NCBI RefSeq assembly: GCF_045679555.1
Contig: NC_092120.1
Location: 7,960,305-8,024,304 of the forward strand
Direction of reading: 5' to 3'
Origin: Salvelinus alpinus
Lineage: Eukaryota > Chordata > Actinopteri > Salmoniformes > Salmonidae
Length of the DNA stretch: 64,000 nt
The position numbers and the translations under genes were made by a program. Each line of letters begins with the position of its first letter. Within the stretch, counting starts at the first letter, position 1. The notes below the pieces were generated by a model, which was given only the letters and a program-made list of their open reading frames with translations, was not told the DNA's origin and searched no databases. Shown piece by piece: positions 6,778 through 57,377 of this stretch.

Positions 6778-8647
6778 TGTAACGGTACTCGTCCTCGTCT
6801 GATGACAAGTATGAAAGATCGGACCAATGTGCAGCGTGGTAAGTGTCCATTTTAATGAAATCCAACTGAACATGAACACTGAATGACAAAACAACAAAAG
6901 AGAATGAACGAGACTGAAACAGTTCTGTATGGAAAAAACACAGACACAGAAAACAACTACCCACAACCCATAGTGGGAAAACAGGCTACCTAAGTATGAT
7001 TCTCAATCAGAGACAACGATCGACAGCTGCCTCTGATTGAGAACCATACCAGGCCAAACACAGAAATACAAAACCTAGACTACAAAACATATAATGCCCA
7101 CCCCAACTCACGCCCTGACCAAACTAAAATAAAGACATAAAAAATGAACTAAGGTCAGAACGTGACAGTACCCCCCCCCCCCCCCCCCCCCCAAAGGTGC
7201 GGACTCCGGCCGCAAAACCTGAACCTATAGGGGAGGGTCTGGGTGGGCATCTCACCACGGTAGTGGCTCTGGTGCGGGACGTGGGCCCCACTCCACCATA
7301 GTCTTGGCCCACTTAGGTGGCGCCTTTGGAGCGGCGACCCTCGCCACCGACCCCGGACTGGGGACCCTTGCAGCGGGCGCCGGATAGACGGGAGACTCTG
7401 GCAGCGCCGGAGTGAAGGTCGACTCTGGCAGCTCCTGACTGACGGGCGGCTCTGGCAGCTCCTGACCGACGGGCGGCTCTGGCAGCTCCTGACCGACGGG
7501 CGGCTCTGGCAGCTCCTGACCGACGGGCGGCTCTGGCAGCTCCTGACCGATGGGCGGATCTGGCAGCTCCTGACAGACGGGCGGCTCTGGCAGCTCAGGA
7601 CAGACGGGCGGCTCTGGCAGCTCAGGACAGACGGGTGGCTCTGGCAGCTCCGGACTGACGAGAGAACCTGGAGGGAGGAGACGGAGAGACAACCTGGTGC
7701 GTGGGGCTGCCACAGGACCCACCAGGCTGGGGAGACCTACAGGAGGCCTGGTGTGTGGAGGAGGCACCGGATGGACCGGGCTGTGGGGGAGCACTGGAGC
7801 TCTGGTGCGCAGCCTTGGCACCACTCCTCCAGGCTGGATGACCACTTTAGCCCGGCCCCTCCAGAGTGCAGGCACAGGTCGAACCGGGCTGTGGGGGAGC
7901 ACTGGAGATCTGGTGCATACTACTCGCACCTCTCCCTTAGGCTCAATGCCCACATTCGCCCGGCACGGGCGGAGCGCAGGCATAGGACGCACTGCACCCT
8001 CCCAGCGCCCCGGAGACACAGCACGCAGAGCCGGCGCAGGATACCCTGGACCGAAACGGCGTACCGGAGACCAGACACGCTGAGCCGGCACAACACGCCC
8101 TGGCTGGATGCCCACTCTCGCATGGCATTTGCGGGGGGCTGGCCTATAGCGCTCTGGGCTATGAGCGCGTACTGGCGACACCGTGCGCTCCACCGCATAA
8201 CACGGTGCCTGACCAGTACAACGCTGCTTTCGGTAAGCACGAGGAGTGGGCTCAGGTCTCCAACCTGACTCCGCCACACTCCCCGTGTGCCCCACCCAAA
8301 AACTTTTTGGGCTGCCTCTCGTGCCTCTCACGCTGCCGTGCTACCTCCTCATATCGCCTCCAGTTCTTCCTTGGGGTGGCGATATTCCCCAGCCTGTGCC
8401 CAGGGTCCCTTACCGTCTAGTATCTCCTCCCAAGTCCAGGAGTCCAGAACCCTCTGCTCCTGGTTACCACGCTGCTTGGTCCTTTTTTGGTGGGTAGTTC
8501 TGTAACGGTACTCGTCCTCGTCTGATGACGAGTATGAAAGATCGGACCAATGTGCAGCGTGGTAAGTGTCCATTTTAATGAAATCCAACTGAACATGAAC
8601 ACTGAATGACAAAACAACAAAAGAGAATGAACGAGACTAAAACAGTT
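6778..8647 (-). mobile_element. LTR retrotransposon copy A (proline-rich family)
   Basis: The 3' LTR is at 6778-7167 (on the + strand TGTAACGG…AACGTGACA). The 5' LTR starts at 8501 and is cut off at about 8647, where it matches only the first ~147 bp. The strand is fixed by the polypurine tract (22 C on +, 7171-7192) next to the 6778 LTR. The interior carries only a proline-rich frame, without integrase or reverse transcriptase. The right LTR end and its target duplication were lost in a deletion that also removed part of the host Tc1. Confidence 0.8.
7252..8612 (-). pseudogene. Proline-rich LTR-element protein, copy A (frameshifted)
   Basis: The frame starts at the LTR-borne ATG region (AHWSDLSYSSSDEDEYRYRT) and crosses the LTR border into RTTHQKRTKQR. 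It reads to a stop near 8349 and resumes in another frame as a 359-residue stretch (7252-8331). This contains 'TPRAYR', 'GQAPCYAVE', alternating SPVRxHSP / RPVPALR units, RTRLSLRLLPPG, and about eight copies of a 9-residue ELPEPPVxx unit. The end (TMVEWGPRPAPEPLPW) matches copy B. No zinc knuckle, protease or polymerase motif is seen. The function is unknown; it occupies the place of gag. Confidence 0.65.
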
Positions 8648-8659
8648 TATACGCAAGTA

Positions 8660-9530
<871 letters not shown>

Positions 9531-9884
9531 CCCAAGTTAAACAATTTAAAGGCAATGCTACCAAATACTAATTGAGTGTATGTAACTTCTGACCCACTGG
9601 GAATGTGATGAAAGAAATAAAAGCTGAAATAAATCATTCTCTCTACTATTATTCGGATATTTCACATTCTTAAAACAAAGTGGTGATCCTAATTGACCTA
9701 AGACAGGGAATTTTTACTAGGATTAAATGTCAGGAATTGTGAAAAACGGAGGTTAAATGTATTTGGCTAAGGTGTATGTAAATGTACGACTTCAACTGTA
9801 TATATATATTATAACTTGTAATGTCCTCATTCAACACAGTATCTGACCAAGTAGGTCTGCATCTGCGTGTTTGTGTGTGTGTAG

Positions 9885-11758: not shown

Positions 11759-11961
11759 AAATTGACCTTAACAAGGGCCCCAGGACCAGTTGAGGCAAAA
11801 TAGCCCCATAACATCAAAGATCCATCACCATATTTTACAGTGGGTATGTGGTGCTTTTCTGCTTATACATTCTCATTTATGAGCTCTATTTTCATGTCAT
11901 CCAACAAATGTAAACACCTGGAGTTTGCTAAATGACATTGGCAATTGGATTGAACCGGTGC

Positions 11962-12190
11962 TGTCACGCCCTGACCTTAGAGAGACGTTTTATTTCTCTA
12001 TTTGGTTAGGTCAGGGTGTGGTTTGGGTGGGCATTCTATGTTTTCTATTTCTTTGCTTTTGGCCGAGTGTGGTTCCCAATCAGAGGCAGCTGTCTATCGT
12101 TGTCTCTGATTGGGGATCATACTTAGGCAGCCCTTTTCCCACCTAATGTTGTGGGTAATTATTTATTTTCTATTTGTGTTTGTGTGCGCC
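11962..12190 (+). mobile_element. LTR fragment of the proline-rich family
   Basis: Starts with TGTCACGCCCTGACCTTAG, as does the solo LTR at 41323. It continues with TTTGGCCGAGTGTGGTTCCC, the hairpin AATCAGAG…CTCTGATT (about 12075-12114) and 'GGGGATCATACTTAGGCA'. It loses similarity near 12190, before the polyadenylation signal and the ACCGTTACA end. It is a truncated LTR inside the 11205-12350 transposon. Confidence 0.7.
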
Positions 12191-15951: not shown

Positions 15952-17104
15952 ATTCATTAGGTTAAAACTGTGTAATTTCCATTTAACCATTTAATTTCTT
16001 TGTAAATATCTGTTAATTTATCTACGTAAAATAAAGTGCTACCCAAGCACACTGAAGAAAAATATTAAAACAAACAGCCAGGCATTCAGAAAGAATAATC
16101 AAACAATCTATTAATATCAAGAGGACTGAGATATGCCTGGAATCCAAGAGGATAAATACATATAATTTCATTTGATTTATCATTTCCATAAACATTTTGG
16201 GTGAAGTTTAGCATGACATATAATTAGAGGGAACCAAAAGTTGTTTTAATAGATACAGTAACTGTTGACTATCTTGGGCAGACACTGGTGTGTCCAACCT
16301 TATACATAAAACATAGTTTTTCATAACCATCCACCATACTTTGGAAAGCATTACTAGAGCCTCACAAATTCAGCATTATCACAACACAGTGTCTCTCTTA
16401 CCTGCTGGTCCTGTGTGGTATGTCTGTATAGTAGACTATGTGAAGTGATAAGCAGAACTCTCATGCTTTCGTACCAATTTTAACCTCAACACTTACTCAT
16501 TTCCCATTTAAAATGTCAGAACTTAGTCACGTCCCAGTTATCATTGCAATGGAGGCGTCGCTCACTTAACTGTCTAACCACACTACAGGAGTTCATCTCA
16601 ACAAACACGTGAAGAATAAACTCAAAATACAGTACTGTCATTGTTGAAATAAAGTATTTTGTGATAGGTGGTTAAATTACTAACTAACATACTTAATTAC
16701 TTACTTACTTACTATTCAAGTAGTACAACCTTCAAGCATAAAGCATTGTTGGTCATTCCAACATACTGTACCACTCTACACAGTTGAATATTGTGTGTTA
16801 AAAACAGTAAAAGAGGAACTTCCTTTTTAGTTCTGTAGTAAAAATGTATTCCTGGCTCTCTCCAAAAGTATAGGTTGTTCTTTCATCTGTAGTGTTGCAA
16901 AAGAATTTAGTGGAAGCACAACTTTGCACTCGTATGAGGGGAAGTGGAACTGACTGCTACTTCTTGTCTCTTAACTTCCCCCAGCTTGACCTAAGTCTTG
17001 ATTTGTTCACATGCTGTATACAGTTCTGAAAAACAAAACAAATGATCTGTAGCGTAGATGTAGTATAGGTGGGAACCATTAGTGGGCCACAAAGGTTGTG
17101 ACCT
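15952..17104. other. dcstamp 5' flank with a candidate 5' UTR exon
   Basis: No coding sequence was recognised. On the minus strand a strong donor (GACCAGCAG/GTAAGA) lies at 16402/16401. It could end a non-coding first exon of dcstamp, extending to about 16480, because the coding exon opens with an acceptor 20 nt before the ATG. A purine motif GAGGGGAAGTGG at about 16936 resembles a PU.1 site, fitting a myeloid gene, but this is only a motif match. Confidence 0.35.
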
Positions 17105-17589
17105 CCTTTTTAGTCCCAACCTACCTGGAGAAATAAAGATAGTAGTTTGTGGAATAACCTACCTGGAGGAATAAAGATAGTAATTTGTGGATGTTGTGGA
17201 ACAACCTACCTGGAGAAATAAAGATAGTAATTTGTGGATGTTGTGGAACAACCTACCAGGATGAATAAAGATAGTAGTTTGTGGATGTTGTGGAACAACC
17301 TACCTGGAGAAATAAATATAGTAATTTGTGGATGTTGTGGAACAACCTACCTGGAGGAATAAATATAGTAATTTGTGGATGTTGTGGAACAACCTACCTG
17401 GAGGAATAAAGATAGTAATTTGTGGATGTTATGGAACAACCTACCTGGAGAAATAAAGATAGTAATTTGTGGATGTTGTGGAACAACCTACCTGGAGGAA
17501 TAAAGATAGTAATTTGTGGATGTTGTGGAACAACCTACCTGGAGGAATAAAGATAGTAATTTGTGGATGTTGTGGAACAACCTACCTGG
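17105..17589. repeat. 47-bp minisatellite, left part
   Basis: About ten copies of a 47-bp unit: CCTACCTGGAGAAATAAAGA followed by TAGTAATTTGTGGATGTTGT and GGAACAA. Variants replace GGAGAAAT with GGAGGAAT or AGGATGAAT. The array is interrupted by the LTR element at 17590 and resumes at 20657. Confidence 0.95.
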
Positions 17590-18095
17590 TGTCACGTTCC
17601 TGACCTATTTCTGTTAGTTTGTTGTATGTGTTAGTTGGTCAGGACGTGAGTTTGGGTGGGCATTCTATGTTGTCTGTTTCTATGTTGGTTTAAGGGTTGC
17701 CTGGTATGGCTCTCAATTAGAGGCAGGTGTTTGGCGTTCCTCTAATTGAGAGTCATATTTAGGTAGGTTGTTTCACAGTGTTCGTTGTGGGTGGTTGTCT
17801 CCTGTTTCAGTGTTTGTCGCACCATACGGGACTGTTCGGTATGTTTGCACATCGTCATTTTTGTGTAGTCTATTTTCCCTGTTCGTGCGTTCTTCGCGTT
17901 ATTTGTAAGTTCGTATTGTTCAGGTCTGTCTATACATTTCGGTTTTGTTATTTTGTAGTTTATTCAAGTCTAGGTCGTTTTCTGTCTTCATTGTTTTGTC
18001 GTGTCTTTATTAAATGATGTATTCACAACCCGCTGCGCCTTGGTTCAATCACTACTCCTCCTCTTCGGTTGAAGAGGAGGAGGACTACCGTTACA
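17590..18095 (+). repeat. 5' LTR of copy B
   Basis: Contains a perfect 14-bp stem-loop (CTCTCAATTAGAGG at 17710-17723 with its inverse at 17739-17752). An ATTAAA polyadenylation signal lies at 18009-18014, and its last A is the first base of an ATG. A 12-bp hairpin lies near the 3' border (18055-18066 with 18071-18082). The conserved segment CCGCTGCGCCTTGGTTC (18030-18046) is complementary to sequence just beyond the LTR. Confidence 0.9.
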
Positions 18096-20144
18096 GAACC
18101 ACCCACCAAATAACCAGAACCAAGCAGCGGTGTAACGGGAGGAACGGACAGCGCACGAAGCAGGATTTATGGTCTTGGGAGGAGATCATGGAAGGAAAAG
18201 GACCATGGGCTAAAGTGGAGGTGAATCGCCGCCCATGGGAACAGCTGGAGGCCGCTCGGAGAGCGGAGGAAACGGGAGAGAGGAACCGGCATTATGAGGG
18301 GACGCGTCTAGCACGGAAGCCCGAAAAGCCCGAGAGTCAGACCCAAAAATTTCTTGGGGGGAGGCACACGAGGAGTGTGGCAAAGCCGGGTAGGATACCT
18401 GAGCCAACTCCCCGTGCTTACCGTGGAGTGAGAGGGCGTCGTACTGGTCAGACACCGTGTTATGCGGTAGGTAAAGCGCACGGTGTCCCCAGTACGCGTG
18501 CTTAGCCCAGTGCGGGCTATTCCACCTTGCCGCACTGGGAGGGCTAGGTTGGGCATCGAGCCGGATGTCATGAAGCCGGCCCAACGCATCTGGCCACCAG
18601 TGCGTCTCCTCGGGCCGGCATACATGGCACCAGCCTTACAGATGGTGTCCCCGGTTCGCCAGCATAGCCCAGTGCGGGCTATTCCACCTCGCCGCACTGG
18701 CAGGGCTACGGGCACCATTCAACCTGGTAGGGTTGGGCAGGCTCGGTGCTCAAGAGCACGTGTCCTCCTTCACGATCCGGTATACCCGGTGCCACCTCCA
18801 AGTACCAGTCCACCGGTGGCAGCCCCCCGCACCAGGCTGTCTCTCCGGGTTCTCTCTCCAGCTGCTCCCACCTGTCCAGCGCTGTCAGAGCTTTCCTCCT
18901 CTCCAGCGCAGCCAGTGCCTATACCACGCACCAGGCTGTCTCTCCGTCTCCTCCCTACAGGTGTGCCCGTCTGCCCAGCGACGCCTGAGCTGCCCGTCTG
19001 CCCAGCGGCGCCTGAACTGCCCGTCTGCCCAGCGGCGCCTGAACTGCCCGTCTGCCCAGCGGCGCCTGAACTGCCCGTCTGCCCAGCGGCGCCTGAACTG
19101 CCCGTCTGCCCAGCGGCGCCTGAACTGCCCGTCTGCCCTGAGCCTGCAAAGCCGCCCGTCTGCCATGAGCCTGCAAAGCCGCCCGTCTGCCATGAGCCTG
19201 CAAAGCCGCCCGTCTGCCATGAGCCTGCAAAGCCGCCCGTCTGCCATGAGCCTGCAGAGCCGCCCGTCTGCCATGAGCCTACAGAGCCGCCCGTCTGCCA
19301 TGAGCCTACAGAGCCGTCCGCCAGACAGGATCAGCCAGAGCCTTCCGCCAGACCGGATCAGCCAGAGCCTTCCGCCAGACCGGATCAGCCAGAGCCTTCC
19401 GCCAGACCGGATCAGCCAGAGCCTTCCGCCAGACCGGATCAGCCAGAGCCTTCCGCCAGACCGGATCAGCCAGAGCCTTCCGCCAGACCGGATCAGCCAG
19501 AGCCTTCCGCCAGACCGGATCAGCCAGAGCCTTCCGCCAGACCGGATCAGCCAGAGCCTTCCGCCAGACCGGATCAGCCAGAGCCTTCCAGCCAGGACCT
19601 GCCAGAGCCGTCCAGCCAGGACCTGCCAGAGCCGTCCAGCCAGGACCTGCCAGAGCCGTCCAGCCAGGACCTGCCAGAACCGTCCAGCCAGGACCTGCCA
19701 GAGCCGTCCAGCCAGGACCTGCCAGAGCCGTCCAGCCAGGACCTGCCAGAGCCGTCCAGCCAGGACCTGCCAGAGCCGTCCAGCCAGGACCTGCCAGTGC
19801 CGTCCAGCCAGGACCTGCCAGAGTCCCTCAGCCAGGACCTGCCAGAGTCCCTCAGCCAGGACCTGCCAGAGTCCCTCAGCCAGGACCTGCCAGAGTCCCT
19901 CAGCCCGGTGCTGCCCCTTATCCCGGTGCTGCCCCTTATCCCGGTGCTGCCCCTTATCCCGGTGCTGCCCCTTCATTTAGGTGGGTTTAGTTGGAGGGTG
20001 GTCATTGGGAGGGGGATACAGAAGCAGGGAGTGACTATGGTGGTGTGGGGACAGCGTCCGGAGCCTGAGCCACCACCGTGGTCAGATGCCCACCCAGACC
20101 CTCCCCTAGACTTTGTGCTGGTGCGCCCGGCGTTCGCACCTTAA
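18014..20144 (+). CDS. Proline-rich repeat protein of the LTR element (unknown function)
   Basis: The first frame starts at the ATG at 18014 inside the 5' LTR (MMYSQPAAPWFNHYSS…EEDYRYRTTHQ). It crosses into the interior and ends at 18505. The second frame (18483-20144, 553 codons, no ATG at its head) overlaps it in another frame. In copy A the same junction reads straight through in one frame, so a 4-nt insertion near 18475 probably split the gene here. The second part has SPVRVLSPVR units, three RTRLSLRxL motifs, then 9-residue units CPAAPELPV (6), C(P/H)EPAKPPV-type (7) and DQPEPSARP (about 10). These are followed by 8-residue SQDLPEPS units (about 13 with variants) and LPLIPV repeats, ending WSDAHPDPPLDFVLVRPAFAP. 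No known domain is recognised. It sits where gag would be. Confidence 0.6.
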
Positions 20145-20155
20145 GGGGGGGGTTA

Positions 20156-20661
20156 TGTCACGTTCCTGACCTATTTCTGTTAGTTTGTTGTATGTGTTAG
20201 TTGGTCAGGACGTGAGTTTGGGTGGGCATTCTATGTTGTCTGTTTCTATGTTGGTTTAAGGGTTGCCTGGTATGGCTCTCAATTAGAGGCAGGTGTTTGG
20301 CGTTCCTCTAATTGAGAGTCATATTTAGGTAGGTTGTTTCACAGTGTTCGTTGTGGGTGGTTGTCTCCTGTTTCAGTGTTTGTCGCACCATACGGGACTG
20401 TTCGGTATGTTTGTACATCGTCATTTTTGTGTAGTCTATTTTCCCTGTTCGTGCGTTCTTCGCGTTATTTGTAAGTTCGTATTGTTCAGGTCTGTCTATA
20501 CATTTCGGTTTTGTTATTTTGTAGTTTATTCAAGTCTAGGTCGTTTTCTGTCTTCATTGTTTTGTCGTGTCTTTATTAAATGATGTATTCACAACCCGCT
20601 GCGCCTTGGTTCAATCACTACTCCTCCTCTTCGGTTGAAGAGGAGGAGGACTACCGTTACA
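20156..20661 (+). repeat. 3' LTR of copy B
   Basis: Same length and sequence as the 5' LTR apart from one transition at 20414. The stem-loop recurs at 20276-20289 with 20305-20318. Transcript 3' ends are expected shortly after the ATTAAA at 20575-20580. Confidence 0.92.
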
Positions 20662-21830
20662 CCTGGAGAAATAAAGATAGTAATTTGTGGATGTTGTGGA
20701 ACAACCTACCAGGATGAATAAAGATAGTAGTTTGTGGATGTTGTGGAACAACCTACCTGGAGAAATAAATCTAGTAATTTGTGGATGTTGTGGAACAACC
20801 TACCTGGAGGAATAAAGATAGTAATTTGTGGATGTTGTGGAACAACCTACCTGGAGAAATAAATACGGTAATTTGTGGATGTTGTGGAACAACCTACCAG
20901 GATGAATAAAGATAGTAGTTTGTGGATGTTGTGGAACAACCTACCTGGAGAAATAAATCTAGTAATTTGTGGATGTTGTGGAACAACCTACCTGGAGGAA
21001 TAAAGATAGTAATTTGTGGATGTTGTGGAACAACCTACCTGGAGAAATAAATACGGTAATTTGTGGATGTTGTGGAACAACCTACCTGGAGGAATACAGA
21101 TAGTAATGTGTGGATGTTGTGGAACAACCTACCTGGAGAAATAAAGATAGTAATTTGTGGAACAACCTACCTGGAGAAATAAAGATAGTAGTTTGTGGAT
21201 GTTGTGGAACAACCTACCTGGAGGAATAAAGATAGTAATTTGTGGATGTTGTGGAACAACCTACCAGGATGAATAAAGACAGTAGTTTGTGGATGTTGTG
21301 GAACAACCTACCTGGAGAAATAAATATAGTAATTTGTGGATGTTGTGGAACAACCTACCTGGAGGAATAAAGATAGTAATTTGTGGATGTTGTGGAACAA
21401 CCTACCTGGAGAAATAAATATAGTAATTTGTGGATGTTGTGGAACAACCTACCAGGATGAATTAAGATAGTAGTTTGTGGATGTTGTGGTGGAACAACCT
21501 ACCTGGAGGAATACAGATAGTAATTTGTGGATGTTGTGGAACAACCTACCTGGAGAAATAAAGATAGTAATTTGTGGAACAACCTACCTGGAGGAATAAA
21601 GATAGTAATTTGTGGATGTTTTGGAATAACCTACCTGGAGAAATAAAGATAGTAATTTGTGGATGTTGTGGAATAACCTACCTGGAGAAATAAAGATAGT
21701 AATGTGTGGATGTTGTGGAATAACCTACCTGGAGGAATAAAGATAGTAATTTGTGGATGTTGTGGAATAACCTACCTGGAGGAATAAAGATAGTAATTTG
21801 TGGATGTTTTGGAACAGGAAATAGTCATGC
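20662..21830. repeat. 47-bp minisatellite, right part
   Basis: Continuation of the array at 17105-17589, about 25 more units with the same GGAGAAAT, GGAGGAAT and AGGATGAAT variants. Blocks of three units repeat as a higher-order set (for example around 20700-20880 and 20890-21060). Two units are shortened, lacking the GGATGTTGT part. Confidence 0.95.
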
Positions 21831-32236: not shown

Positions 32237-33895
32237 TGTCACGGCCGTCGTCTAGGTGGAAATGACCGGACCAAGGTGCAGCGTGGTGAGCGTACATTTT
32301 CTTTTATTTATTTACAAAACAAGAAACAAAGAAACGACCGTGAAGCTTACTAGGGCTATAGTGCCACTAACAAAGTCAACTACCCACAAAATACAAAGGA
32401 AAAAAGGCTGACTAAGTATGATTCCCAATCAGGGACAACGATAGACAGCTGTCCCTGATTGAGAACCATACCCGGCCAAAACATAGAAATACAAAACATA
32501 GAAATAAAGAAACTAGAATGCCCACCCTAGTCACACCCTGGCCTAACCAAAATAGAGAATAAAAGCCTCTCTATGGCCAGGGCGTGACAGTACCCCCCCC
32601 CAAAGGTATGGACTCCGGCCGCAAAACCTGACTCTAAAGGGGAGGGTCCGGGTGGGCATCTTTTCACGGCGGAGGCCCCGGTGCGGGACGTAGACCCCGC
32701 TCAACCTCTGGCCCCCCCACTTTGGTGGCGCCTCTGGTGCGGGGACCCTCGTCGCCGACCCCGGACTGGGGACCCTCGCCGCAGGTCCCGGACTGGGGAC
32801 CGTTGCAAGCCCCGGACTGGGGACCGTCGCCGGAGGCTCTGGACTGGGGACCGTCGCCGAAGGCTCCGGACCGGGGACCGTTTCCGGAGGCTCCGGACTG
32901 GGGACTGTCGTTGGAGGCTCCGGACTGGCCCGTGGAGCAGGCACAGGTCGAACCGGGCTTTGGGGGAGCACTAGAGATCTGGTGCTTAGACCTTGCACCG
33001 CTCCTCTTGGCTGAATGCCCACTTTAGCCCGGCACGTACGGAGCGCAGGCATAGGACGAACCGGGCTGTCACAACGCACCAGAGACACAGTGCGCAGAGC
33101 CGGCGCAAGACTCACCGGGCTGTGGAGGCGCACTGGGGGTCTGGAGCGTAGAGCTGGCACAAGACGTGCAGGGCTGGGGAGGGGCACAGGGGGCCTGGTG
33201 CGTGGGGCTGGCACAGTCTTCACCAGACGGCTAGCACGCACCTCAGGACGAGTATGAAGAGCTGACTCAGGTGACATTACCCTAAGGACACGCTCCGTAG
33301 GGTGAATGTCGTGCCCCATGCACCAACACAGCAGCTCTCTCCTCCAATCTCCCCATCAACTCCTTAACTGTCTCTGCTTCACTCCCCTCCAAGTTCACCA
33401 TCTTCTCCCCGACTGGCTCTGGTTCCAACCTCGGCTCCGCCGACCATCCCGTGTGCGCCCCCCCCCCCAAAAAAATATGTTTTGGGGCTGCCTCTCCTGG
33501 CCACGCTGCTTGGTCCTTTGGTGGTGGGTAGTTCTGTCACGGCCGTCGTCTAGGTGGAAATGACCGGACCAAGGTGCAGCGTGGTGAGCGTACATTTTCT
33601 TTTATTTAGAATGTCGCCAACAAAACAAGAAACAAAGAAACGACCGTGAAGCTTACTAGGGCTATAGTGCCACTAACAAAGTCAACTACCCACAAAATAC
33701 AAAGGAAAAAAGGCTGCCTAAGTATGATTCCCAATCAGAGACAACGATAGACAGCTGTCCCTGATTGAGAACCATACCCGGCCAAAACATAGAAATATAA
33801 AACATAGAAATAAAGAAACTAGAATGCCCACCCTAGTCACACCCTGGCCTAACCAAAATAGAGAATAAAAGCCTCTCTATGGCCAGGGCGTGACA
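32237..33895 (-). mobile_element. LTR retrotransposon copy C (proline-rich family)
   Basis: LTRs at 32237-32589 and 33535-33895 (on + TGTCACGGCCGTCG…GGCGTGACA). A perfect 5-bp duplication GTGTG flanks it (32232-32236 and 33896-33900). The purine tract (nine C on +, 32593-32601) adjoins the left LTR, so the element reads on the minus strand. The LTRs differ by an 8-bp indel (TTATTTAC versus TTAGAATGTCGCC region) and a few substitutions, so it is older than copy B. The interior is under 1 kb, with only proline-rich coding sequence. Confidence 0.92.
32543..33595 (-). pseudogene. Proline-rich LTR-element protein, copy C (degraded)
   Basis: The frame begins in the LTR (MYAHHAAPWSGHFHLDDGRD) and crosses to RTTHHQRTKQRGQERQPQN, which matches copies A and B. 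It then shifts frame several times. The clearest later piece (32543-33319, 258 codons) has RPPVPLPSPARLVPALRSRP, LRTVSLVRCDSPVRPMPALR and SPEPPxTVP repeats. It lacks the ELPEPPV and DQPEPSARP arrays of the other copies and has its own 7-10 residue PSPGPATVP-type array. No enzymatic domain. Confidence 0.6.
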
Positions 33896-41036: not shown

Positions 41037-41322
41037 ACGCTCAAGGTCCTAAATGATATCATAAGCGCCATCGATAAGAGCCATTACTGTGCAGCCGTAT
41101 TCATCGACCTGGCCAAGGCTTTCGACTCTGTCAATTACCGCATTCTTATCGACAGACTCAATAGCCTTGGTTTCTCACATGATTGCCTCGCCTGGTTCAC
41201 TAACTACTTCTCAGATAGAGATCAGTGTGTCAAATCAGAAGGCCTCTGGCAGTCTCTATGGGGGTGCCACAGGGTTCAATTCTCGGGCCGACTCTTTTCT
41301 CTGTATATAGCAATGATGTTGC

Positions 41323-41676
41323 TGTCACGCCCTGACCTTAGAGATCCTTATTATTCGCTATGTTTGGTTAGGTCAGGGTGTGACTCGGGTGGGAAATTCT
41401 ATGTTTTCTGTTTCTTTGTTTTTGGCCGAGTGTGGTTCCCAATCAGAGGCAGCTGTCTATTGTTGTCTCTGATTGGGGATCATACTTAGGCATCCCTTTT
41501 TCCCACCATTAGGTTGTGGGATCTTGATTTCTGTTTAGTTACTGTTGCCTGACAGAACTGTGCATATTCGTTTTCAATTTTGTTATTTTGTTTGAGTGTT
41601 TTTTAAATAAAAATCATGAACACTTTCCACGCTGCGCCTTGGTTTACTCTTTCTACCACCAACGAGAGCCGTTACA
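41323..41676 (+). mobile_element. Solo LTR of the proline-rich family in the LINE
   Basis: 354-bp LTR starting TGTCACGCCCTGACC and ending GAGAGCCGTTACA, flanked by perfect GTTGC duplications (41318-41322 and 41677-41681). It has the stem-loop (41438-41478), AATAAA near 41607 and an ATG shortly after (MNTFHAAPWF), as in the full elements. The LINE frame resumes directly after the right GTTGC. Confidence 0.92.
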
Positions 41677-43759: not shown

Positions 43760-45000
43760 CAGCAGCAGCCGTTACAGCAGGGTTATATCAGCAGCCGTTA
43801 CAGCAGGGTTATATCAGCAGCCGTTACAGCAGGGTTATATCAGCAGCCGTTATAGCAGGGTTATAGCAGCGTTATAGCAGCAGCCGTTATAGCAGGGTTA
43901 TAGCAGCGTTACAGCAGCAGCCGTTATAGCAGCAGCTGTTATAGCAGCAGCCGTTATAGCAGCAGCCGTTATAGCAGCAGCCGTTATAGCAGCAGCCGTT
44001 ATAGCAACAGCCGTTATAGCAGCAGCCGTTATAGCAACAGCCGTTATAGCAGCAGCCGTTATAGCAGCAGCCGTTATAGCAGCAGCCGTTATAGCAGCAG
44101 CCGTTATAGCAGCAGCCACAGTGTAGTGTAGGCTACATGGGAGCAGCCGTTATAGCAGCAGCCTCAGTGTAGTGTAGGCTACATGGGAGCAGCCGTTATA
44201 GCAGCAGCCTCAGTGTAGTGTAGGCTACATGGGAGCAGCCGTTATAGCAGCAGCCTCAGTGTAGTGTAGGCTACATGGGAGCAGCCGTTATAGCAGCAGC
44301 CTCAGTGTAGTGTAGGCTACATGGGAGCAGCCGTTATAGCAGCAGCCTCAGTGTAGTGTAGGCTACATGGGAGCAGTCGTTACAGCAGCAGCCTCAGTGT
44401 AGTGTAGCCTACATGGGAGCAGCCGTTATAGCAGCAGCCTCAGTGTAGTGTAGGCTACATGGGAGTAGCCGTTATAGCAGCAGCCTCAGTGTAGTGTAGG
44501 CTACATGGGAGCAGTCGTTATAGCAGCAGCCTCAGTGTAGTGTAGGCTACATGGGAGCAGCCGATATAGCAGCAGCCTCAGTGTAGTGTAGGCTACATGG
44601 GAGCAGTCGTTATAGCAGCAGCCTCAGTGTAGTGTAGGCTACATGGGAGCAGTCGTTATAGCAGCAGCCTCAGTGTAGTGTAGGCTACATGGGAGTAGCC
44701 GTTATAGCAGCAGCCTCAGTGTAGTGTAGGCTACATGGCAGCAGCCGTTATAGCAGCAGCCTCAGTGTAGTGTAGGCTACATGGGAGCAGTCGTTATAGC
44801 AGCAGCCTCAGTGTAGTGTAGGCTACATGGGAGCAGTCGTTATAGCAGCAGCCTCAGTGTAGTGTAGGCTACATGGGAGCAGTCGTTATAGCAGCAGCCT
44901 CAGTGTAGTGTAGGCTACATGGGAGTAGCCGTTATAGCAGCAGCCTCAGTGTAGTGTAGGCTACATGGCAGCAGCCGTTATAGCAGCAGCCTCAGTGTAG
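43760..45000. repeat. Composite satellite: 15-bp units passing into 46-bp units
   Basis: The left part (to about 44115) is made of GTTATAGCAGCAGCC 15-bp units and variants. From about 44115 to 45000 the unit becomes 46 bp: CAGCAGCCTCAGTGTAGTGT + AGGCTACATGGGAGCAGCCG + TTATAG, about 19 copies. Blocks of three to four 46-bp units repeat together (TCGTTATAG and GTAGCCG variants recur in order). Confidence 0.95.
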
Positions 45001-47050
45001 TGAATTAACACAGAATGAGATATAACATCTCTGGCATGGCAGCTCTGCCTGAACACCAACTGAGCCATCAATAAATTCAGACTGAAGAAAGGCTCTGCTA
45101 CTTCCCAGACAGACTTTATCAGGACTCAGGGTGTTAACAGAACAGCACAGAGAGACAACCCAGGGAGGGCTTGGGACAATACTACTATTTGTGCTGCAAG
45201 ACAATAAGGACTAGGTCAATCATACATGTCTTACAGTCTGACCTGTGGGATGGAATTATTGTAATCAAAAGGAGAGACTTTTAGATTTCTTCAAAACAAT
45301 CAAACTTTATTATTTAATTACTGCAGTAATGGAGCTGGTCGATAATCACCCCTGCAGGTGATCACTGAGAACTCAACCAGCTGGTTGGAGCCACAGCATT
45401 GTATTGCAAAGTCCATCCTCCTTCAGTCTACTTGACAAACAACAGATATATGGAATGGGTCACAAGGTTAAGATTTGCATGAAAGATGCTTATACAGTCC
45501 TCATTGTGTAGAGATCAGGGTCTGGCCCCCCAACTCCATACTGGAGCCATCTCCCCCTGGTACCCCAGTACAGAAACATTAACTCATGCTCTGGAATGTG
45601 GTATCACCCAAAGACATCGTAAATCTCCTGTCAGTGTTAAATCTCCCAGAGGCCCACTTTCAGTTCACACAGACACAATAGAGTTATAAGAACCCTCTAT
45701 TCTGTTGCATAAAACAACCATTTGATGCAATTACAGCATTATAACATAATCTTGCAATGTTGCTCTCACACATGAGCTGAAGAAAGTACAATAGCAACAT
45801 GCAGATGTTTCTGGGCCAGAGTGCATATTAATCATCTCCTGAAGCAGCTTAACTGAAGTGTCGTTGAGATCACAAGATTGCAACACAATTCTGTAACTGT
45901 AACTATCTTTATCAGCACAATGTTTTATGACAACTTGCCTAGAAAGATGCTGAGATAGGACAGGTAGGCTGTCATATTTACTATTTGAGCATATCACATT
46001 TTATTAGTTACAATATCGGTACGTTTGAAACATTGCATAAGGCAATATTTTCAATGGCTTGCAGAATTTGAGGCACTAAAGTGTGTTTTTTTCTGCTGAG
46101 GCAGATTTGTTAACAGCAGTTTTGGGGGAGGAGGATGTATTGGGATTTAGAGTCTTCTCCTCCGAGGCTAGAGTGTAATTACCAGACTGCTGAACGAGGT
46201 CTGAAACAATCAAACTTTACAAATCAACTCTGTGTTTCAGCTTGGTCATGAGTAACGCCACGCTGACACATACACGCACACATGCCCACATGTGTACACA
46301 CACACAAGTGCACGCACATGCACACGCATACACACACAAGCACACGCACACACACATACAGAAAAACATCAGCCCTATGAAGCAGCTATCACAACAAGAT
46401 CAATTACACCATTATGTTCAAGCTAACAAACTTCTAGAGTCCACATTGATTCCTCAACCGTATGGTAACCTTGAATTAACACAGCAGAATAGCGAATAAC
46501 AAGGTTAATACATTACATGCCTGGTACAGTAAGACAGTCCCTTCAGCAGAAATATCCAAAGGTCAACACGAGAACTTTACATCTGTTACACGGTGCTATT
46601 TTAAGTAAGAACAAATACCATCGTCTTCGAACAAAAGAATGAAAGGAACAAAGTGTGTGTGCGTGTTTCTTTGCACATGACCTCTTGACGCCCACTTAGA
46701 AACAACCCTGTATGTGTCTGTCAGTCAGACTCTGTTTGGTCAACCTGCTCCAATCCCATCGACATGGATACAGATAGAACATCTAGAATAACCTCTTAAA
46801 TCCATCCATCCTTTGAATGCGCACCTTAAGTCGGCCGTCAGGGCCTCTGGGTAAAGCAACAACAAAGTAGGCCAAAGAGAGAGAAAGAGAGTACATTGCA
46901 GGGGGACGACATGGCAGAGTCTCCATCCATTGGTTGGTTCAGAACCAGGACAAAGATTTGAGAGACGGACACACAGACATACTCACGCTGATGCACCTAA
47001 AAGCATTGAGTGAAATATTGATATGCTCTTAAGATTCAAGCTGAAGGGGG
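45001..47050 (-). other. rims2: rims2 intron, nothing coding recognised
   Basis: Mostly unique sequence with a CA-rich tract at about 46265-46360. 45240-45700 has a repeat-like character, but I could not assign it to a family. No exon recognised. Confidence 0.45.
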
Positions 47051-47262: not shown

Positions 47263-48849
<1,587 letters not shown>

Positions 48850-48891
<42 letters not shown>

Positions 48892-49685: not shown

Positions 49686-49989
49686 ATCTTTCCTTTTGAT
49701 AGAAACACAATCATAGCTTTTGCATGTGCTCATTCATTTCCAGAGAAGTTGTGTACTTGCCTTTTGTGAAATAACCATTGAGACTTATTTATTATACAAC
49801 CACATAATGGATGGTGTTAGAAATGGGAAGAGACAAGTGTCTTACAGATAAAGACATGACGATGTGCTATCTAGAGACCCTATCAGGAATATTGTCCATA
49901 TCTTGACCAAATCAGTCACTCAAAGAACTTCAGAAGCTCACTTCAGTCACAAGTCAAAAAGGGGTGAAGGAGGAGAGAGGTTCTACTGA

Positions 49990-50993
49990 CAGGGCTGTGG
50001 TGCAACCATGACAGAATGATGTGCTGCGGTGCAACCATGACAGAATGATGTGCTGCGGGGCAACCATGACATAACGATGTGCTGCGGTGCAACCATGACA
50101 GAATGATGTGCTGCGGTGCAACCATGACAGAATGATGTGCTGCGGTGCAACCATGACAGAATGATGTGCTGCGGTGCAACCATGACAGAATGATGTGCTG
50201 CGGTGCAACCATGACAGAATGATGTGCTGTGGGGCAACCATGACAGAATGATGCGCTGTGGTGCAACCATGACAGAATGATGCGCTGTGGGGCAACCATG
50301 ACAGAATGATGCGCTGTGGGGCAACCATGACAGAATGATGTGCTGCGGTGCAACCATGACAGAATGATGCGCTGTGGGGCAACCATGACAGAATGATGCG
50401 CTGTGGGGCAACCATGACAGAATGATGTGCTGTGGGGCAACCATGACAGAATGATGTGCTGTGGGGCAACCATGACAGAATGATGTGCTGTGGGGCAACC
50501 ATGACAGAATGATGTGCTGTGGGGCAACCATGACAGAATGATGTGCTGTGGGGCAACCATGACAGAATGATGTGCTGTGGGGCAACCATGACATAATGAT
50601 GTGCTGCGGGGCAACCATGACAGAATGATGCGCTGTGGGGCAACCATGACAGAATGATGCGCTGTGGGGCAACCATGACATAATGATGTGCTGCGGGGCA
50701 ACCATGACAGAATGATGCGCTGTGGGGCAACCATGACAGAATGATGTGCTGTGGGGCAACCATGACAGAATGATGCGCTGTGGGGCAACCATGACAGAAT
50801 GATGCGCTGCGGGGCAACCATGACAGAATGATGCGCTGTGGGGCAACCATGACAGAATGATGCGCTGCGGGGCAACCATGACAGAATGATGCGCTGTGGG
50901 GCAACCATGACAGAATGATGCGCTGCGGGGCAACCATGACAGAATGATGCGCTGTGGGGCAACCATGACAGAATGATGCGCTGCGGGGCAATC
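49990..50993. repeat. 29-bp minisatellite, about 34 copies
   Basis: Unit GCAACCATGACAGAATGATG + TGCTGTGGG with TGCTGCGGT, CGCTGTGGG and CGCTGCGGG variants. Variants are ordered in blocks along the array. Because 29 is not a multiple of three and the unit has no minus-strand stop, all three minus frames stay open over about 1 kb. Confidence 0.97.
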
Positions 50994-51230
50994 AGTAGGA
51001 ACGACTAAAACTACAAAGAGATAAGACTGGGGCCCATGTCATGTGGGGTAAGGCAGCACCACGTGAGTGACACACACACACACACATGCACGCTCCAGCA
51101 CATGCGCACTCACACATGCACGCACGCACACACACAATCATTCCGCACCTCTCTTTACGTTCAACGCTCAGTGGACACGACTGATGAAGAAGGGAGTGAC
51201 CATTGACCATAATCATCCCAGACCTGGGGC

Positions 51231-52739: not shown

Positions 52740-52900
52740 TAGAGGAGAGGGAGAGGGAGAGGGAGAGGAGAGGAAGAGGAGAAGAGGTAGAGGAAAGGAG
52801 ACAGGGGTGGAGACAGGGGAGGAGAGAAGAGGAGACAGAGGAGACGAGGAGACGAGAAAATGAGACCGGGGAGGAGACAGGGGACGAGAGGAGACAAGGA
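52740..52900. repeat. GA-rich imperfect repeat
   Basis: Purine-rich GGAGA/GAGGAG sequence just 5' of the rims2 exon on the coding strand (pyrimidine-rich there). This may add to the weak pyrimidine tract of that exon. Confidence 0.85.
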
Positions 52901-52904
52901 CAGG

Positions 52905-53615
52905 ATTCAGCTACAGTAGTCCAGGACTTAGGGAATAGGTTTAGAGACAGGGCTCAGCTACAGTAGTCCAGGACTTAGGGAATAGGTTTAGAGACAGGGC
53001 TCAGCTACAGTAGTCTAGGACTTAGGGAATAGGTTTAGAGACAGGGCTCAGCTACAGTAGTCTAGGACTTAGGGAATAGGTTTAGAGACAGGGCTCAGCT
53101 ACAGTAGTCTAGGACTTAGGGAATAGGTTTAGGGACAGGGCTCAGCTACAGTAGTCTAGGACTTAGGGAATAGGTTTAGAGACAGGGCTCAGCTACAGTA
53201 GTCTAGGACTTAGGGAATAGGTTTAGAGACAGGGCTCAGCTACAGTAGTCTAGGACTTAGGGAATAGGTTTAGGGACAGGGCTCAGCTACAGTAGTCTAG
53301 GACTTAGGGAATAGGTTTAGGGACAGGGCTCAGCTACAGTAGTCTAGGACTTAGGGAATAGGTTTAGAGACAGGGCTCAGCTACAGTAGTCCAGGACTTA
53401 GGGAATAGGTTTAGAGACAGGGCTCAGCTACAGTAGTCTAGGACTTAGGGAATAGGTTTAGAGACAGGGCTCAGCTACAGTAGTCCAGGACTTAGGGAAT
53501 AGGTTTAGAGACAGGGCTCAGCTACAGTAGTCTAGGACTTAGGGAATAGGTTTAGAGACAGGGCTCAGCTACAGTAGTCTAGGACTTAGGGAATAGGTTT
53601 AGAGACAGGGCTCAA
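52905..53615. repeat. 47-bp minisatellite, about 15 copies
   Basis: Unit CTCAGCTACAGTAGTCTAGG + ACTTAGGGAATAGGTTTAGA + GACAGGG. Variants are GTCCAGG/GTCTAGG and TTTAGAG/TTTAGGG. Unrelated in sequence to the 47-bp array at 17105. Confidence 0.95.
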
Positions 53616-54895
53616 GGTCCTCTGGCTAAACTTCCCACAGATGTGTCATGCACTGGATGGGTAGCTGGTTGATTGATACATTAATATGGCTGTTTTACTG
53701 ATTTTGTGATCATTGTCAAATGAGTACATATACAAAACAGTTAAAAATGAAAAGTGAATTCAACTAACATGCAGAAAGGTACAGTAAAAGCCTGTGACAC
53801 CTTGTTCCTCCTTCAACCATCTAAAATGAAACAGTCATATTGTTTGAACAACAAAAGAGTCTTCACCTTTTTAAGAAATAAGACATCTCAATTCTAAAGC
53901 TCTAAATTCTAGTCTTTCTACCTTTTATCCCCAGCTTCAGATGAGCTATTCATTATGACCGGCAATCTGTTCTTATTTATTCTCCTCAGGATTCAAGTGA
54001 TCAAAGAGAAGATGTGAAGTTTGACCCTGATTCATGAGCACGCTTACAATTTGTGGAAGAGTTCATTTCAATACTGGTGAGAAATTATTCAAAAAAATAA
54101 CTTTTCTTTTTCTGCATGAAAAGAAATAGGTGTCGAAATGAAGGCCTCATTTTGGCTCACAGTGCTAGGTTTAAAGTTTGAGAGACAAATGATATCCTGT
54201 GCCATGGGTTTTAAGTCCTAATGAGTATAACTGAGTATAAATACGTGGTAAAGAGCCGCCCGAGCACAGGAGTCGTCTAAAACGGCGGCTGACCTATAAC
54301 GTGCAATTGTCTCATCCAGAAGATTTTAAGAAGAGTCAATAGGATCAAAAATCTATGCCCTTTGACAATTACTTCTTCAATTATTTCAATTAGGCTCCTC
54401 TCCTCCTCTCCCGTCTCTACCATTCACGTCTGTGGCATTAGTGCTCTATTCAGTTTGAAGCTGTTACATAGGCTACTTCCCTTAATTGCTCTTAAGGTGA
54501 TTATGTAGGGCTCATGTATCCTCACTCAGTGAAGGGATGTTTCTGCTTCTGTATGAACTGAACATGTCCACTGGGTTCGTCCAAATCGGCTGTAGATACT
54601 GGACTGAAAGAGGCACAGTGAATACTGTACATCTAAATTATTATTTTATACTCATATCATTTAGCCTACATTAGTTATTTACAAAAACAATCAATAATAC
54701 ATGCTACAATTCACTAACTATGGATTACTCTGTTTAACTATGAGTTTCTATCTACCAGCACTACACATGTAAGACTTAAAACTCCTCAGAAATCAATCAG
54801 CCTATAAGCCCACTGTATTAGCTCAGTGTTCTGAGGGAGAGAGGGGTATGCAAGAAGTAAGTGATCACTGTCTCTGCACACTCATGAGTTTATTA
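53616..54895 (-). other. rims2: rims2 intron, nothing recognised
   Basis: Unique AT-rich sequence without conserved frames. Confidence 0.5.
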
Positions 54896-55739: not shown

Positions 55740-57377
55740 CAGCTGAAGTAGGAAGTTTACATACACTTAGGTTGGAATCATTAAAACTCGTTTTTCAACC
55801 ACTCCACAAATCTCTTGTTAACAAACTATAGTTTTGGCAAGTCGGTTAGGACATCTACTTTGTGCATGACACAAGTCATTTTTCCAACAATTGTTTACAG
55901 ACAGATTATTTCACTTATAATTCACTGTATCACAATTCCAGTGGGTCAGAAGTTTACACACACTAAATTGACTGTGCCTTTAAACAGCTTGGAAAATTCC
56001 AGAAAATTATGTCATGGCTTTATAAGCTTCTGATAGGCTAATTGATATAATTTGAGTCAATTGGAGGTGTACCTGTGGATGTATTTCAAGGCCTACCTTC
56101 AAACTCAGTGCCTCTTTGCTTGAAATCATGGGAAAATCTAAAGAAATCAGCCAAGACCTCAGAAGAAAAATTGTAGACCTCCACAAGTCTGGTTCATCCT
56201 TGGGAGCAATTTCCAAATGTCTGAAGGTACCACGTTCATCTGTACAAACAATAGTATGCAAGTATAAACACCATGGGACCACGCTGCTGTTATACCACTC
56301 AGGAAGGAGACGCGTTCTGTCTCCTAGAGATGAACGTACTTTGGTGAGAAAAGTGCAAATCAATCCCAGAACAACAGAAAAGGACCGTGTGAAGATGCTG
56401 GAGGAAACAGGTACAAAAGTATCTACATCCACAGTAAAACGAGTCCTATATCGACATAACCTGAAAGGCCGCTCAGCAAGGAAGATGCCACTGCTCCAAA
56501 ATCGCCATAAAAAAGCCAGACTACGGTTTGCAACTGCACATGGGGACAAAGATTGTACTTTTTGGAGAAATGTCCTCTGGTCTGATGAAACAAAAATAAA
56601 ACAGTTTGGCCATAATGACCATCGTTATGTTTGGAGGAAAAAGGGGGAGGCTTGCAAGCCGAAGAACGCCATCCCAACCGTGAAGCACGGGGATGGCAGG
56701 ATCATGTTGTGGGGTTGCTTTGCTGCAGGAGGGACTAGTGCACTTCACAAAATAGATGGCATCATGAGGAGGGATGATTATGTGGATATATTGAAGCTAC
56801 ATCTCAAGACATCAGTCAGGAAGTTAAAGCTTGATCGCAAATGGGTCTTCCAAATGGACAATGACCCCAAGCATACTTCCAAAGTTGTGGCAAAATGGCT
56901 TAAGGACAACAAAGTCAAGGTATTGGAGTGGCCATCACAAAGCCCTGACCTCAATTCTATAGAAAATTTGTGGGCAGAACTGAAAAAGTGTGTGTGAGCA
57001 AGGAGGCCTACAAACCTGACTCCGTTACACCAGCTCTGTCAGGAGGAATGGGCCAAAATTCACCCAACTTATTTTGGGAAGCTTGTGGAAGTCTACACGA
57101 AACGTTTGACCCAAGTTAAACCATTTAAAGGCAATGCTACCAAATACTAATTGAGTGTATTTTAACTTCTGACCCACTGGGAATGTGATGAAAGAAATAA
57201 AAGCTGAAATAAATAATTCTCTCTACTATTATTCTGACATTTCACATTCTTAAAATAAAGTGGTGATCCTAACTGACCTAAAACAGGGAAATTTACTAGG
57301 ATTAAATGTCAGGAATTGTGAAAAACTGAGTTTAAATGTATTTGGCTAAGGTGTATGTAAACTTCCGACTTCAAATG
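55740..57377 (+). mobile_element. Tc1 transposon, nearly intact
   Basis: The left end CAGCTGAAGTAGGAAGTTTA and right end AAACTTCCGACTTCAAATG are flanked by TA (55738-55739 and 57378-57379). About 1.64 kb, the usual length for the family. Two outer-TIR substitutions are visible (AGCTGAAGTAGG; TCAAATG). It contains the best-preserved transposase of the window. Confidence 0.92.
56128..56997 (+). pseudogene. Tc1 transposase, open except for a late stop
   Basis: From the ATG at 56128 ([20 protein letters not shown]; the 12 in-frame bases before it lack an ATG) the frame stays open for 289 codons. It has the paired-like helix-turn-helix, the RRR basic motif (SGRRRVLSP) and all three catalytic residues of the DD34E set: Asp in LWSDETK, Asp in [10 protein letters not shown] and Glu in DLNSIENLWAE. 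It ends at KKCV-stop, where relatives continue with [15 protein letters not shown] to GNATKY. The last ~45 residues are therefore lost by a CGA-to-TGA type change at 56995-56997. NSIENLW and HGDGRIMLWG are departures from the family. It is probably inactive or impaired. Confidence 0.88.

What the first reader, a model, noticed from the sequence alone, without database searches (positions are those of the whole stretch)
17590..20661. A family of pol-less LTR retrotransposons that encode only a proline-rich repeat protein
Seen: three copies (17590-20661, 32237-33895, 6778-8647), each with LTRs and a purine tract; copies B and C also have 5-bp target duplications. Each has one proline-rich frame sharing TTHQxxRTKQR, SPVR/HSP units and RTRLSLRLLP, with no reverse transcriptase or integrase. 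Known: non-autonomous LTR elements (LARD/TRIM types) normally have no conserved protein. Inference: the protein is kept because it helps the element (particle, RNA binding or localisation), while enzymes come from a helper. Copy B, with one LTR difference seen in 506 bp, is recent.
Basis: partly seen in the sequence, partly recalled or inferred. Interest (0 to 1): 0.75.

Follow-up and report, generated by a model that had tools for sequence, protein, structure and literature searches.

The report
Pol-less retrotransposons keeping one odd protein
Thousands of jumping DNA elements in this fish genome have lost the enzymes needed to copy themselves, yet they share one unusual proline-rich protein that selection appears to have preserved, which suggests it helps them exploit enzymes made by other elements.

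Summary
The finding is real and larger than reported. The three window copies belong to a large superfamily of pol-less LTR retrotransposons: 1,988 exact 5' and 6,969 exact 3' junctions genome-wide. In a sample taken by position on one contig, all 18 LTR-to-LTR pairs have internal lengths of 1.3-2.9 kb, and none of 62 chromodomain sites has this 3' junction downstream.

The frame is not only proline-rich: it starts at an ATG inside the 5' LTR (29 of 31 sampled copies), reads through the primer-binding site and stops at the polypurine tract. It is open throughout in 3 of 18 (549-807 aa) and broken in all three window copies. The non-repeat N-terminal domain shows purifying selection (omega about 0.4); repeat periods are multiples of 3 in 91 of 92 arrays, window control 7 of 29.

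The primer site pairs with the predicted mRNA 5' end, with compensatory changes. This is Tf1/sushi-type self-priming, shared with abundant chromodomain elements, which are therefore the likely helpers; their sampled LTRs are otherwise dissimilar. Protein function is inferred, not shown.

The parts
17590..18095 (+). 5' LTR of the main copy (506 bp, TGTCACG...CGTTACA)
   Evidence: 1 mismatch to the 3' LTR; TSD CCTGG at 17585-17589 and 20662-20666
17787..17796 (+). Self-primer GTGGGTGGTT at the predicted mRNA 5' end, about 26-32 nt after ATATTTA
18014..18505 (+). N-terminal piece of the ORF (163 aa, MMYSQPAAPWFNHYSSSSVEEEEDYRYRTTHQITRTKQR...), starting at an ATG inside the LTR; cut short by a frame change in this copy
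   Evidence: no Pfam match
18097..18106 (+). Primer-binding site AACCACCCAC, perfect complement of the self-primer; lies inside the coding frame
18483..20144 (+). Rest of the ORF: SPVR-rich part, 27-nt and 24-nt arrays (proline-rich units), C-terminal MVVWGQRPEPEPPPWSDAHPDPPLDFVLVRPAFAP, TAA
20145..20152 (+). Polypurine tract (G8) directly after the TAA stop
20156..20661 (+). 3' LTR of the main copy
33535..33895 (-). 32237 copy (minus sense): 5' LTR with ORF start ATG at 33595; self-primer 33684-33693, PBS 33524-33533; TSD GTGTG 32232-32236/33896-33900
32590..33534 (-). 32237 copy: internal region with the broken frame and purine tract (complement of about 32593-32601)
32237..32589 (-). 32237 copy: 3' LTR
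8501..8647 (-). 6778 copy (minus sense): truncated 5' LTR with ORF start ATG at 8573; PBS 8490-8499
7168..8500 (-). 6778 copy: internal region, frame broken after 74 codons, another 359-aa open frame at 7252-8331
6778..7167 (-). 6778 copy: 3' LTR
11957..12181 (+). Partial or solo LTR of the same superfamily
41322..41600 (+). Partial or solo LTR of the same superfamily

Best explanation
[quoted passage not shown] Shown from sequence: they keep LTR ends, polypurine tract and a self-priming primer-binding site, but no enzymes. They carry one element-long reading frame that starts in the 5' LTR, passes through the primer-binding site and stops at the polypurine tract. It encodes an N-terminal domain (basic TTHQxxRTKQR stretch, a W(T/S)WEE(I/V)LDGKG motif in most families, a charged, probably helical stretch), an SPVR-rich part, arrays of 9-aa and, in most, 6-8-aa proline-rich units, and a conserved C-terminus. 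Amino-acid selection on the N-terminal domain is supported. Inferred: the element is transcribed from the LTR and translated. The protein acts mainly on the RNA that encodes it, by binding, protecting or localising it or bringing it into the helper's particle. Reverse transcriptase and integrase come from Tf1/sushi chromoviruses, which are abundant in the genome, some with open frames of 1,400 codons or more.
For: Junction counts 1,988 and 6,969, reversed-pattern controls 0 and 4. On contig C1 below 45.2 Mb, 18 of 31 five-prime junctions pair with a same-strand 3' junction within 12 kb; all internal lengths 1.3-2.9 kb. LTR ATG in frame with the PBS in 17 of these 18 and in 12 of the 13 unpaired ones; the ATG is an invariant aligned position in 13 leaders. 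3 of 18 fully open from LTR ATG to 2, 4 and 30 nt before the tract (807, 778, 549 aa). The first 20 of 82 unpaired 3' junctions all show the same 3' end by eye, 16 with the exact motif GACCCTCCCC, and no chromodomain match. Selection: pairwise omega 0.14-0.72 between families, below the 5% tail of a ts/tv-matched null in 7 of 12 pairs (recounted); tree parsimony on 44 copies, post-PBS omega 0.43/0.39 (uncorrected), third-position changes 190 against 112 and 99, p about 1e-8. Array periods multiples of 3 in 91 of 92 and 132 of 135, window control 7 of 29. Self-primer:PBS complement of 10-12 nt in 12 of 12 LTRs, four of them from chromoviruses, always one base into the PBS, with six different sequences; exact in 38 of 42 places; recovered unprompted by RNA folding. 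Chromodomain pattern 3,480 hits; 28 of the 150 listed SH3_Tf2-1 hits lie in open frames of 1,400 aa or more (counted by eye).
Against: No expression, translation or interaction data. No known domain or relative. Omega is moderate, not strong: LTR-encoded part 0.75/0.73, C-terminus 0.62 with a non-significant codon-position test; five of 12 pairs were not below the 5% null tail; terminal branches are no weaker than internal ones. Each single self-primer match is weak alone (0 to 17 of 300 shuffled LTRs match as long); the case rests on the shared position and the compensatory changes. Part of the LTR-encoded peptide (SSSS...EEEE) lies over a conserved RNA hairpin, so its constraint may be on RNA. 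Most sampled copies are broken (15 of 18), often at an internal G tract. In 5 of 31 sampled copies the frame ends or shifts before the WxWE motif and two more carry a variant of it. The sampled chromovirus LTRs show no similarity beyond the ends, so the helper is not proven; the LTR ends also fit the published motif of the rGmr1 clade (PMC3601003, Table 3 passage).
Confidence: 0.6

Rival explanations
1. The protein is a strongly diverged Gag (or a piece of one) from a lost or unsampled autonomous parent, so the element is an animal version of plant TR-GAG elements and the protein builds or joins the particle.
For: TR-GAG elements have LTRs and one gag ORF and can move (passages of PMC8704663). 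The position of the frame, around and after the PBS, is where gag lies in the sampled chromoviruses.
Against: No gag family in Pfam for the frames scanned or for 12 N-terminal domains (the best of the N-terminal matches is E 0.05 in one member). The N- and C-terminal segments find nothing in the fetched chromovirus ends, and the gag frames of three chromovirus 5' ends find nothing in the element loci (its three chromodomain hits lie in DNA flanking satellite LTRs). No capsid-like or zinc-knuckle family was recognised. No structure prediction was possible.
Confidence: 0.2
2. The frame is kept for RNA reasons only: an RNA that is open to its 3' end escapes nonsense-mediated decay and is exported and translated, which brings it to the helper; the amino-acid sequence does not matter.
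For: The intact frames span the whole element and stop next to the purine tract. The repeats could be a neutral in-frame spacer. The LTR part overlaps an RNA hairpin and shows weak amino-acid constraint.
Against: Post-PBS N-terminal domain omega about 0.4, with a third-position excess (p about 1e-8), and residues invariant in 12 divergent rows (RYRTTH, KQR, WxWE, GKG).
Confidence: 0.15
3. The frame is a decayed part of a normal gag-pol, or an accident of G+C-rich tandem repeats.
For: The repeat region is open in more than one frame in the window.
Against: No longer element among 18 paired, 13 unpaired 5' and 20 unpaired 3' junctions; 0 of 62 chromodomain sites have the exact junction of this LTR type within 5 kb downstream; selection and period-3 arrays.
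Confidence: 0.03

Closest known systems
TR-GAG elements (terminal-repeat retrotransposons with GAG domain, plants)
   Same: LTRs, a single ORF, no pol; amplified in trans (passages of PMC8704663)
   Different: Here the protein has no recognisable gag domain, begins inside the LTR and contains long proline repeats; priming is self-priming; host is a fish; no autonomous parent found in the sample
Tf1/sushi group chromoviruses
   Same: LTR ends fit the published sushi motif TGTYANR...CNTNACA (PMC3601003), self-priming PBS, purine tract; 3,480 chromodomain-pattern hits in this genome
   Different: No gag, protease, RT, RNase H, integrase or chromodomain; LTR sequences otherwise unlike the 22 chromovirus 3' ends sampled (13, 9)
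LARD / TRIM non-autonomous LTR elements
   Same: Mobile in trans, LTR-PBS-PPT architecture (recalled)
   Different: Those are described as lacking conserved coding capacity (recalled); here a frame is under selection. The start of the abstract of PMC6934838, seen in the listing, calls a bivalve TRIM among the first known in animals
Ty1 of yeast (gag frame beginning inside the LTR; recalled, no call)
   Same: Start codon of the element's first frame lies in the 5' LTR (recalled)
   Different: Ty1 is autonomous, Copia-type and tRNA-primed (recalled)

Membership tests
Tf1/sushi chromovirus | LTR termini matching TGTYANR...CNTNACA | tested here: met
   TGTCACG...CGTTACA/CGTGACA against Table 3 passage of PMC3601003; not exclusive, rGmr1 also fits
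Tf1/sushi chromovirus | Self-priming: PBS complementary to the mRNA 5' end | tested here: met
   12 of 12 LTRs, six sequences (single matches reached by 0-17 of 300 shuffles); 38 of 42 places exact; mRNA start inferred from TATA-like spacing, not mapped
Tf1/sushi chromovirus | gag-pol with RT, RNase H, integrase and chromodomain | tested here: not met
Tf1/sushi chromovirus | RT/IN phylogeny inside the group | not testable with these tools
   the elements have no RT or IN
TR-GAG | LTRs with a single ORF and no pol | tested here: met
TR-GAG | ORF encodes a GAG domain | tested here: not met
   no gag match in Pfam; no similarity to three chromovirus gag frames; a very diverged gag is not excluded
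TR-GAG | Closely similar autonomous parent | tested here: inconclusive
   none in the samples; the whole genome could not be scanned for it
LARD/TRIM | No conserved protein-coding capacity | tested here: not met
LTR element with transduced host gene | Frame derived from a host gene | tested here: inconclusive
   no Pfam or PDB relative apart from Cornifin-like repeats; host gene set not searched
rGmr1 clade | Pol with integrase before RT | not tested
   only its published LTR-end motif was compared

The most novel reading that the evidence does not exclude
A satellite retroelement class with its own selected, non-Gag protein. The protein is a new kind of cis-acting retrotransposon factor, with a basic W-rich N-terminal domain tied by a proline-repeat spacer to a conserved C-terminus. 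It lets an enzyme-less RNA outcompete its helper for the replication machinery, much as some satellite viruses encode only their own coat. Its start codon lies in the LTR and its frame passes through the self-priming site, so translation and primer formation would have to alternate on the same RNA stretch.
Probability: 0.35. Interest if true: 0.8.

Novelty: new variant of a known kind. Interest (0 to 1): 0.62.

Why it matters
Non-autonomous LTR elements are usually treated as passive RNA parasites. A superfamily with thousands of junctions that carries no enzymes but keeps one protein under selection is a natural test of whether an element can benefit in cis from its own non-catalytic protein. 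The architecture also couples coding sequence with replication signals: start codon in the LTR, PBS inside the frame, stop next to the purine tract. Such copies may also be mistaken for host proline-rich genes in annotation (inference; not checked).

Tried and rejected
Rejected readings: decayed gag-pol; chance open frame in repeats; tRNA priming, not scanned for, because the PBS does not begin with TGG and is explained by the self-primer; programmed frameshift at the internal G tract: in-frame copies mostly carry 6 or 9 G (or an interrupted run), out-of-frame ones mostly 7, 8, 10 or 11, with a few exceptions both ways, so slippage damage is the simpler account.

Led nowhere: Rfam and tRNA scans of the window; PDB, viral and prokaryote collections for relatives of the N-terminal domain; paper searches for a description of this family: none of the listings I saw named such an element, and only open-licence papers are held. 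A count of 3' junctions preceded by the conserved 3' coding motif was asked for many times and never answered.

Limits: the close-relative sets (L001-L060) were picked by similarity, and many of L001-L030 look like solo LTRs. The C1 sample was picked by exact junction patterns and position; the 5' pattern itself contains the codons of RTTH. The ATG was sought only in frame. Selection analyses need open frames: of 52 copies at hand 44 were used (7 dropped as listed, and L040 never entered because no ATG was found); 31 of 46 junctions (the window 3' end is in there twice, as win and L002). The 42 places hold the 17590 copy three times (L001, L031, window), and one of the four misses is the 6778 copy with its truncated LTR. 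Rows of alignment A2 were chosen from places with an exact self-primer match, so its 100% pairing of that helix is by selection; the changes on both sides are not. In one search the number of pairs changed on both sides is not unusual (77 of 500 shuffles reach it), while the covariation score is (0 of 500). In one search within-family comparisons rest on very few changes. The 12 rows were my choice. The species was not identified by any search; salmonid is my recollection of the repeat types.
Full report
WHERE. The window lies in a 2.37-Gb genome (G000, contig C35) whose repeats look salmonid to me (recollection, not a test). I name the three copies by their start coordinate: 6778 (minus sense), 17590 (plus), 32237 (minus).

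OBSERVATION. The three copies have LTRs, two have 5-bp target duplications, and all have a G-rich polypurine tract beside the 3' LTR. The 17590 copy sits in a 47-bp minisatellite and has one LTR difference in 506 bp. The 6778 copy has a truncated 5' LTR.

THE FRAME IS LONGER THAN SEEN. In the 17590 copy an ATG at 18014, inside the LTR, opens a frame that crosses the LTR end and the primer-binding site. Of 30 relatives fetched by similarity (L031-L060, the first being the window copy itself), 27 carry a frame of more than 100 aa from an LTR ATG, and two more (L038, L039) were recovered with a wider ATG window. Frames complete to ...DFVLVRPEFAP and a stop occur in L032 (580 aa) and L035 (644 aa); 12 others run open to the end of the fetched stretch.

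A SAMPLE NOT PICKED BY OVERALL SIMILARITY. I searched the genome for the 5' junction (LTR end plus PBS) and the 3' junction (purine tract plus LTR start): 1,988 and 6,969 exact hits, reversed controls 0 and 4. The first 100 hits of each are listed by position. On contig C1 below 45.2 Mb, 18 of 31 five-prime junctions pair with a same-strand 3' junction within 12 kb, with internal lengths 1.3-2.9 kb and none near the length of gag-pol. All 18 were fetched. 17 of 18 have an LTR ATG in frame with the PBS; three are open from that ATG to 2, 4 and 30 nt before the tract (807, 778 and 549 aa); the other 15 are broken. Of the 13 unpaired 5' junctions 12 have the LTR ATG. In 24 of these 31 the W(T/S)WE motif of the N-terminal domain follows in frame (14 of 18; 10 of 13 by eye, one of them behind a stop); two carry a variant (TWEEI, TWDEI) and five are broken or lack it. 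The first 20 of 82 unpaired 3' junctions all have the same 3' end by eye, 16 with the exact motif GACCCTCCCC. The gag frames of three chromovirus 5' ends and one chromodomain frame have no tblastn match in any of these loci. No gag-pol was met.

WHAT THE PROTEIN LOOKS LIKE. N-terminus: M..xxAAxW, an acidic/serine stretch, RYRTTH(Q/H)xRTKQR, then W(T/S)WE(E/D)(I/V)LDGKG and a charged, probably helical stretch; some families carry a second TWEEI module. Invariant in the 12 rows are, among others, A6 A7 W9, RYRTTH, KQR, WxWE and GKG; the wider set has exceptions such as RITHQ and KQW. Then SPVR/HSPVR units, arrays of 27-nt units (18 of 18 C1 elements) and mostly downstream of them 18-nt arrays (15 of 18) or 24-nt arrays, and a C-terminus such as MVGWGPRPEPEPPPWSDAHPDPPLDF. 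Pfam finds Cornifin in the repeats of four of five frames and nothing in the 32237 frame or the 17590 N-terminal piece. The N-terminal domain has no convincing Pfam relative (best E 0.05 in one of 12 members), none in the PDB, and none in the viral-contig and prokaryote collections.

SELECTION. Pairwise omega of the post-PBS N-terminal domain is 0.14-0.72 between families. Against a null with the same transitions and transversions, 7 of 12 pairs fall below the 5% tail and 5 do not. On a tree of 44 copies (of 52; see limits) uncorrected omega is 0.43 on internal and 0.39 on terminal branches post-PBS, with 190 third-position changes against 112 and 99. Against a simple reading, terminal branches are no weaker than internal ones, probably because many tips are single members of old families. 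The LTR-encoded part is weakly constrained (0.75/0.73), and the C-terminus moderately (0.62, p 0.002; position test p 0.12). Array periods are multiples of three in 91 of 92 arrays of the C1 sample and 132 of 135 of L031-L060, against 7 of 29 elsewhere in the window; the periods are partly inherited, so these are not independent events. Frames are often lost at an internal G tract whose length varies.

PRIMING. The PBS is not a tRNA complement of the usual TGG type. In 12 of 12 LTRs tested (three window copies, five relatives, four chromoviruses) the longest perfect complement of the PBS region in the LTR is 10 nt (once 12), always starting one base into the PBS, at LTR position 188-205 in the seven with a defined LTR start, with six different sequences: compensatory change. 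Each match alone is modest (0 to 17 of 300 shuffled LTRs do as well); for the 6778 copy the 3' LTR was used because the 5' LTR is truncated. In 42 places with this PBS type 38 have an exact complement, 26-32 nt after a TATA-like box, that is at the expected mRNA 5' end. RNA folding of the 17590 leader recovers the duplex unprompted, with a second duplex beside it and a hairpin under the SSSS/EEEE codons (z -2.1, 3 of 100 shuffles as stable). On an alignment of 13 leaders the primer helix has two positions changed on both sides; over the whole proposed structure the covariation score exceeds all 500 shuffles while the number of such pairs does not. Self-priming with such a multi-duplex leader is described as a common feature of the Tf1/sushi group (passages of PMC10085805 and PMC6317226).

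HELPER. The genome is rich in Tf1/sushi-type elements: 3,480 hits of a chromodomain pattern and 150 listed SH3_Tf2-1 hits, 28 of them in open frames of at least 1,400 aa (counted by eye). Four whose 5' ends I examined start TGTCACG and are self-primed; a G-rich tract followed by an LTR-like start was matched in 9 of 13 and 8 of 9 sampled 3' ends. None of these 22 3' ends has an LTR similar to the window LTRs by blastn (only short matches, best E 0.007, under permissive settings), and 0 of 62 chromodomain sites on C1 have the exact satellite junction within 5 kb downstream. Helper identity is therefore by mechanism, not by shared LTR. The LTR ends also fit the rGmr1 motif of the same published table, a class not tested here.

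MECHANISM. Shown from sequence: enzyme-less element, self-priming signals, element-long conserved frame, amino-acid constraint on the N-terminal domain. Inferred: transcription from the LTR, translation from the LTR ATG, cis benefit of the protein, enzymes from Tf1/sushi chromoviruses. Conserved basic residues next to a tryptophan motif and a helix fit RNA binding or particle recruitment, with the proline arrays as a variable spacer, but this is a guess from composition.

NOVELTY. Enzyme-less elements with a GAG frame are known in plants (TR-GAG). Here the protein is not recognisably GAG, starts in the LTR and spans the element, and the element is self-primed and in a fish. My nine searches of the held library (listings seen, passages of four papers read: PMC8704663, PMC3601003, PMC10085805, PMC6317226) did not show this family; repeat databases were not available, and the LTRs may well be catalogued there.

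Noticed in passing
window 56116-56994 (+); related DNA at 8827-9809 and 47905-48858: Open frame of a Tc1/Sleeping Beauty-type transposase (PF25787, PF01498, PF13358) and two further related copies.
   Followed up: partly
window 17006-17728 and 20553-21777: One 47-bp minisatellite array interrupted by the 17590 element.
   Followed up: no
window 43953-45126, 49878-51018, 52757-53761, 61282-62869: Further tandem arrays with periods of about 46, 29, 47 and 84-102 bp.
   Followed up: no
L031-L060, L078-L095, about 250-350 nt after the PBS: Internal G tract (mostly 6-12 G, in frame mainly as 6 or 9) shortly after the N-terminal domain, a common site of frame loss; it resembles the 3' purine tract and might act as a second plus-strand priming site (speculation).
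   Followed up: partly
L009, L012, L027: Chromodomain fragments of other elements lie in the DNA within 1.5 kb of three fetched satellite LTRs, possibly shared target preference or chance.
   Followed up: no
L088; window 33200-33400 (-): Some families carry a further module (EVETVKDLMGKLEEREIRDLLVWCMRHDIRPTEH...) after the N-terminal domain, suggesting module exchange between families.
   Followed up: no
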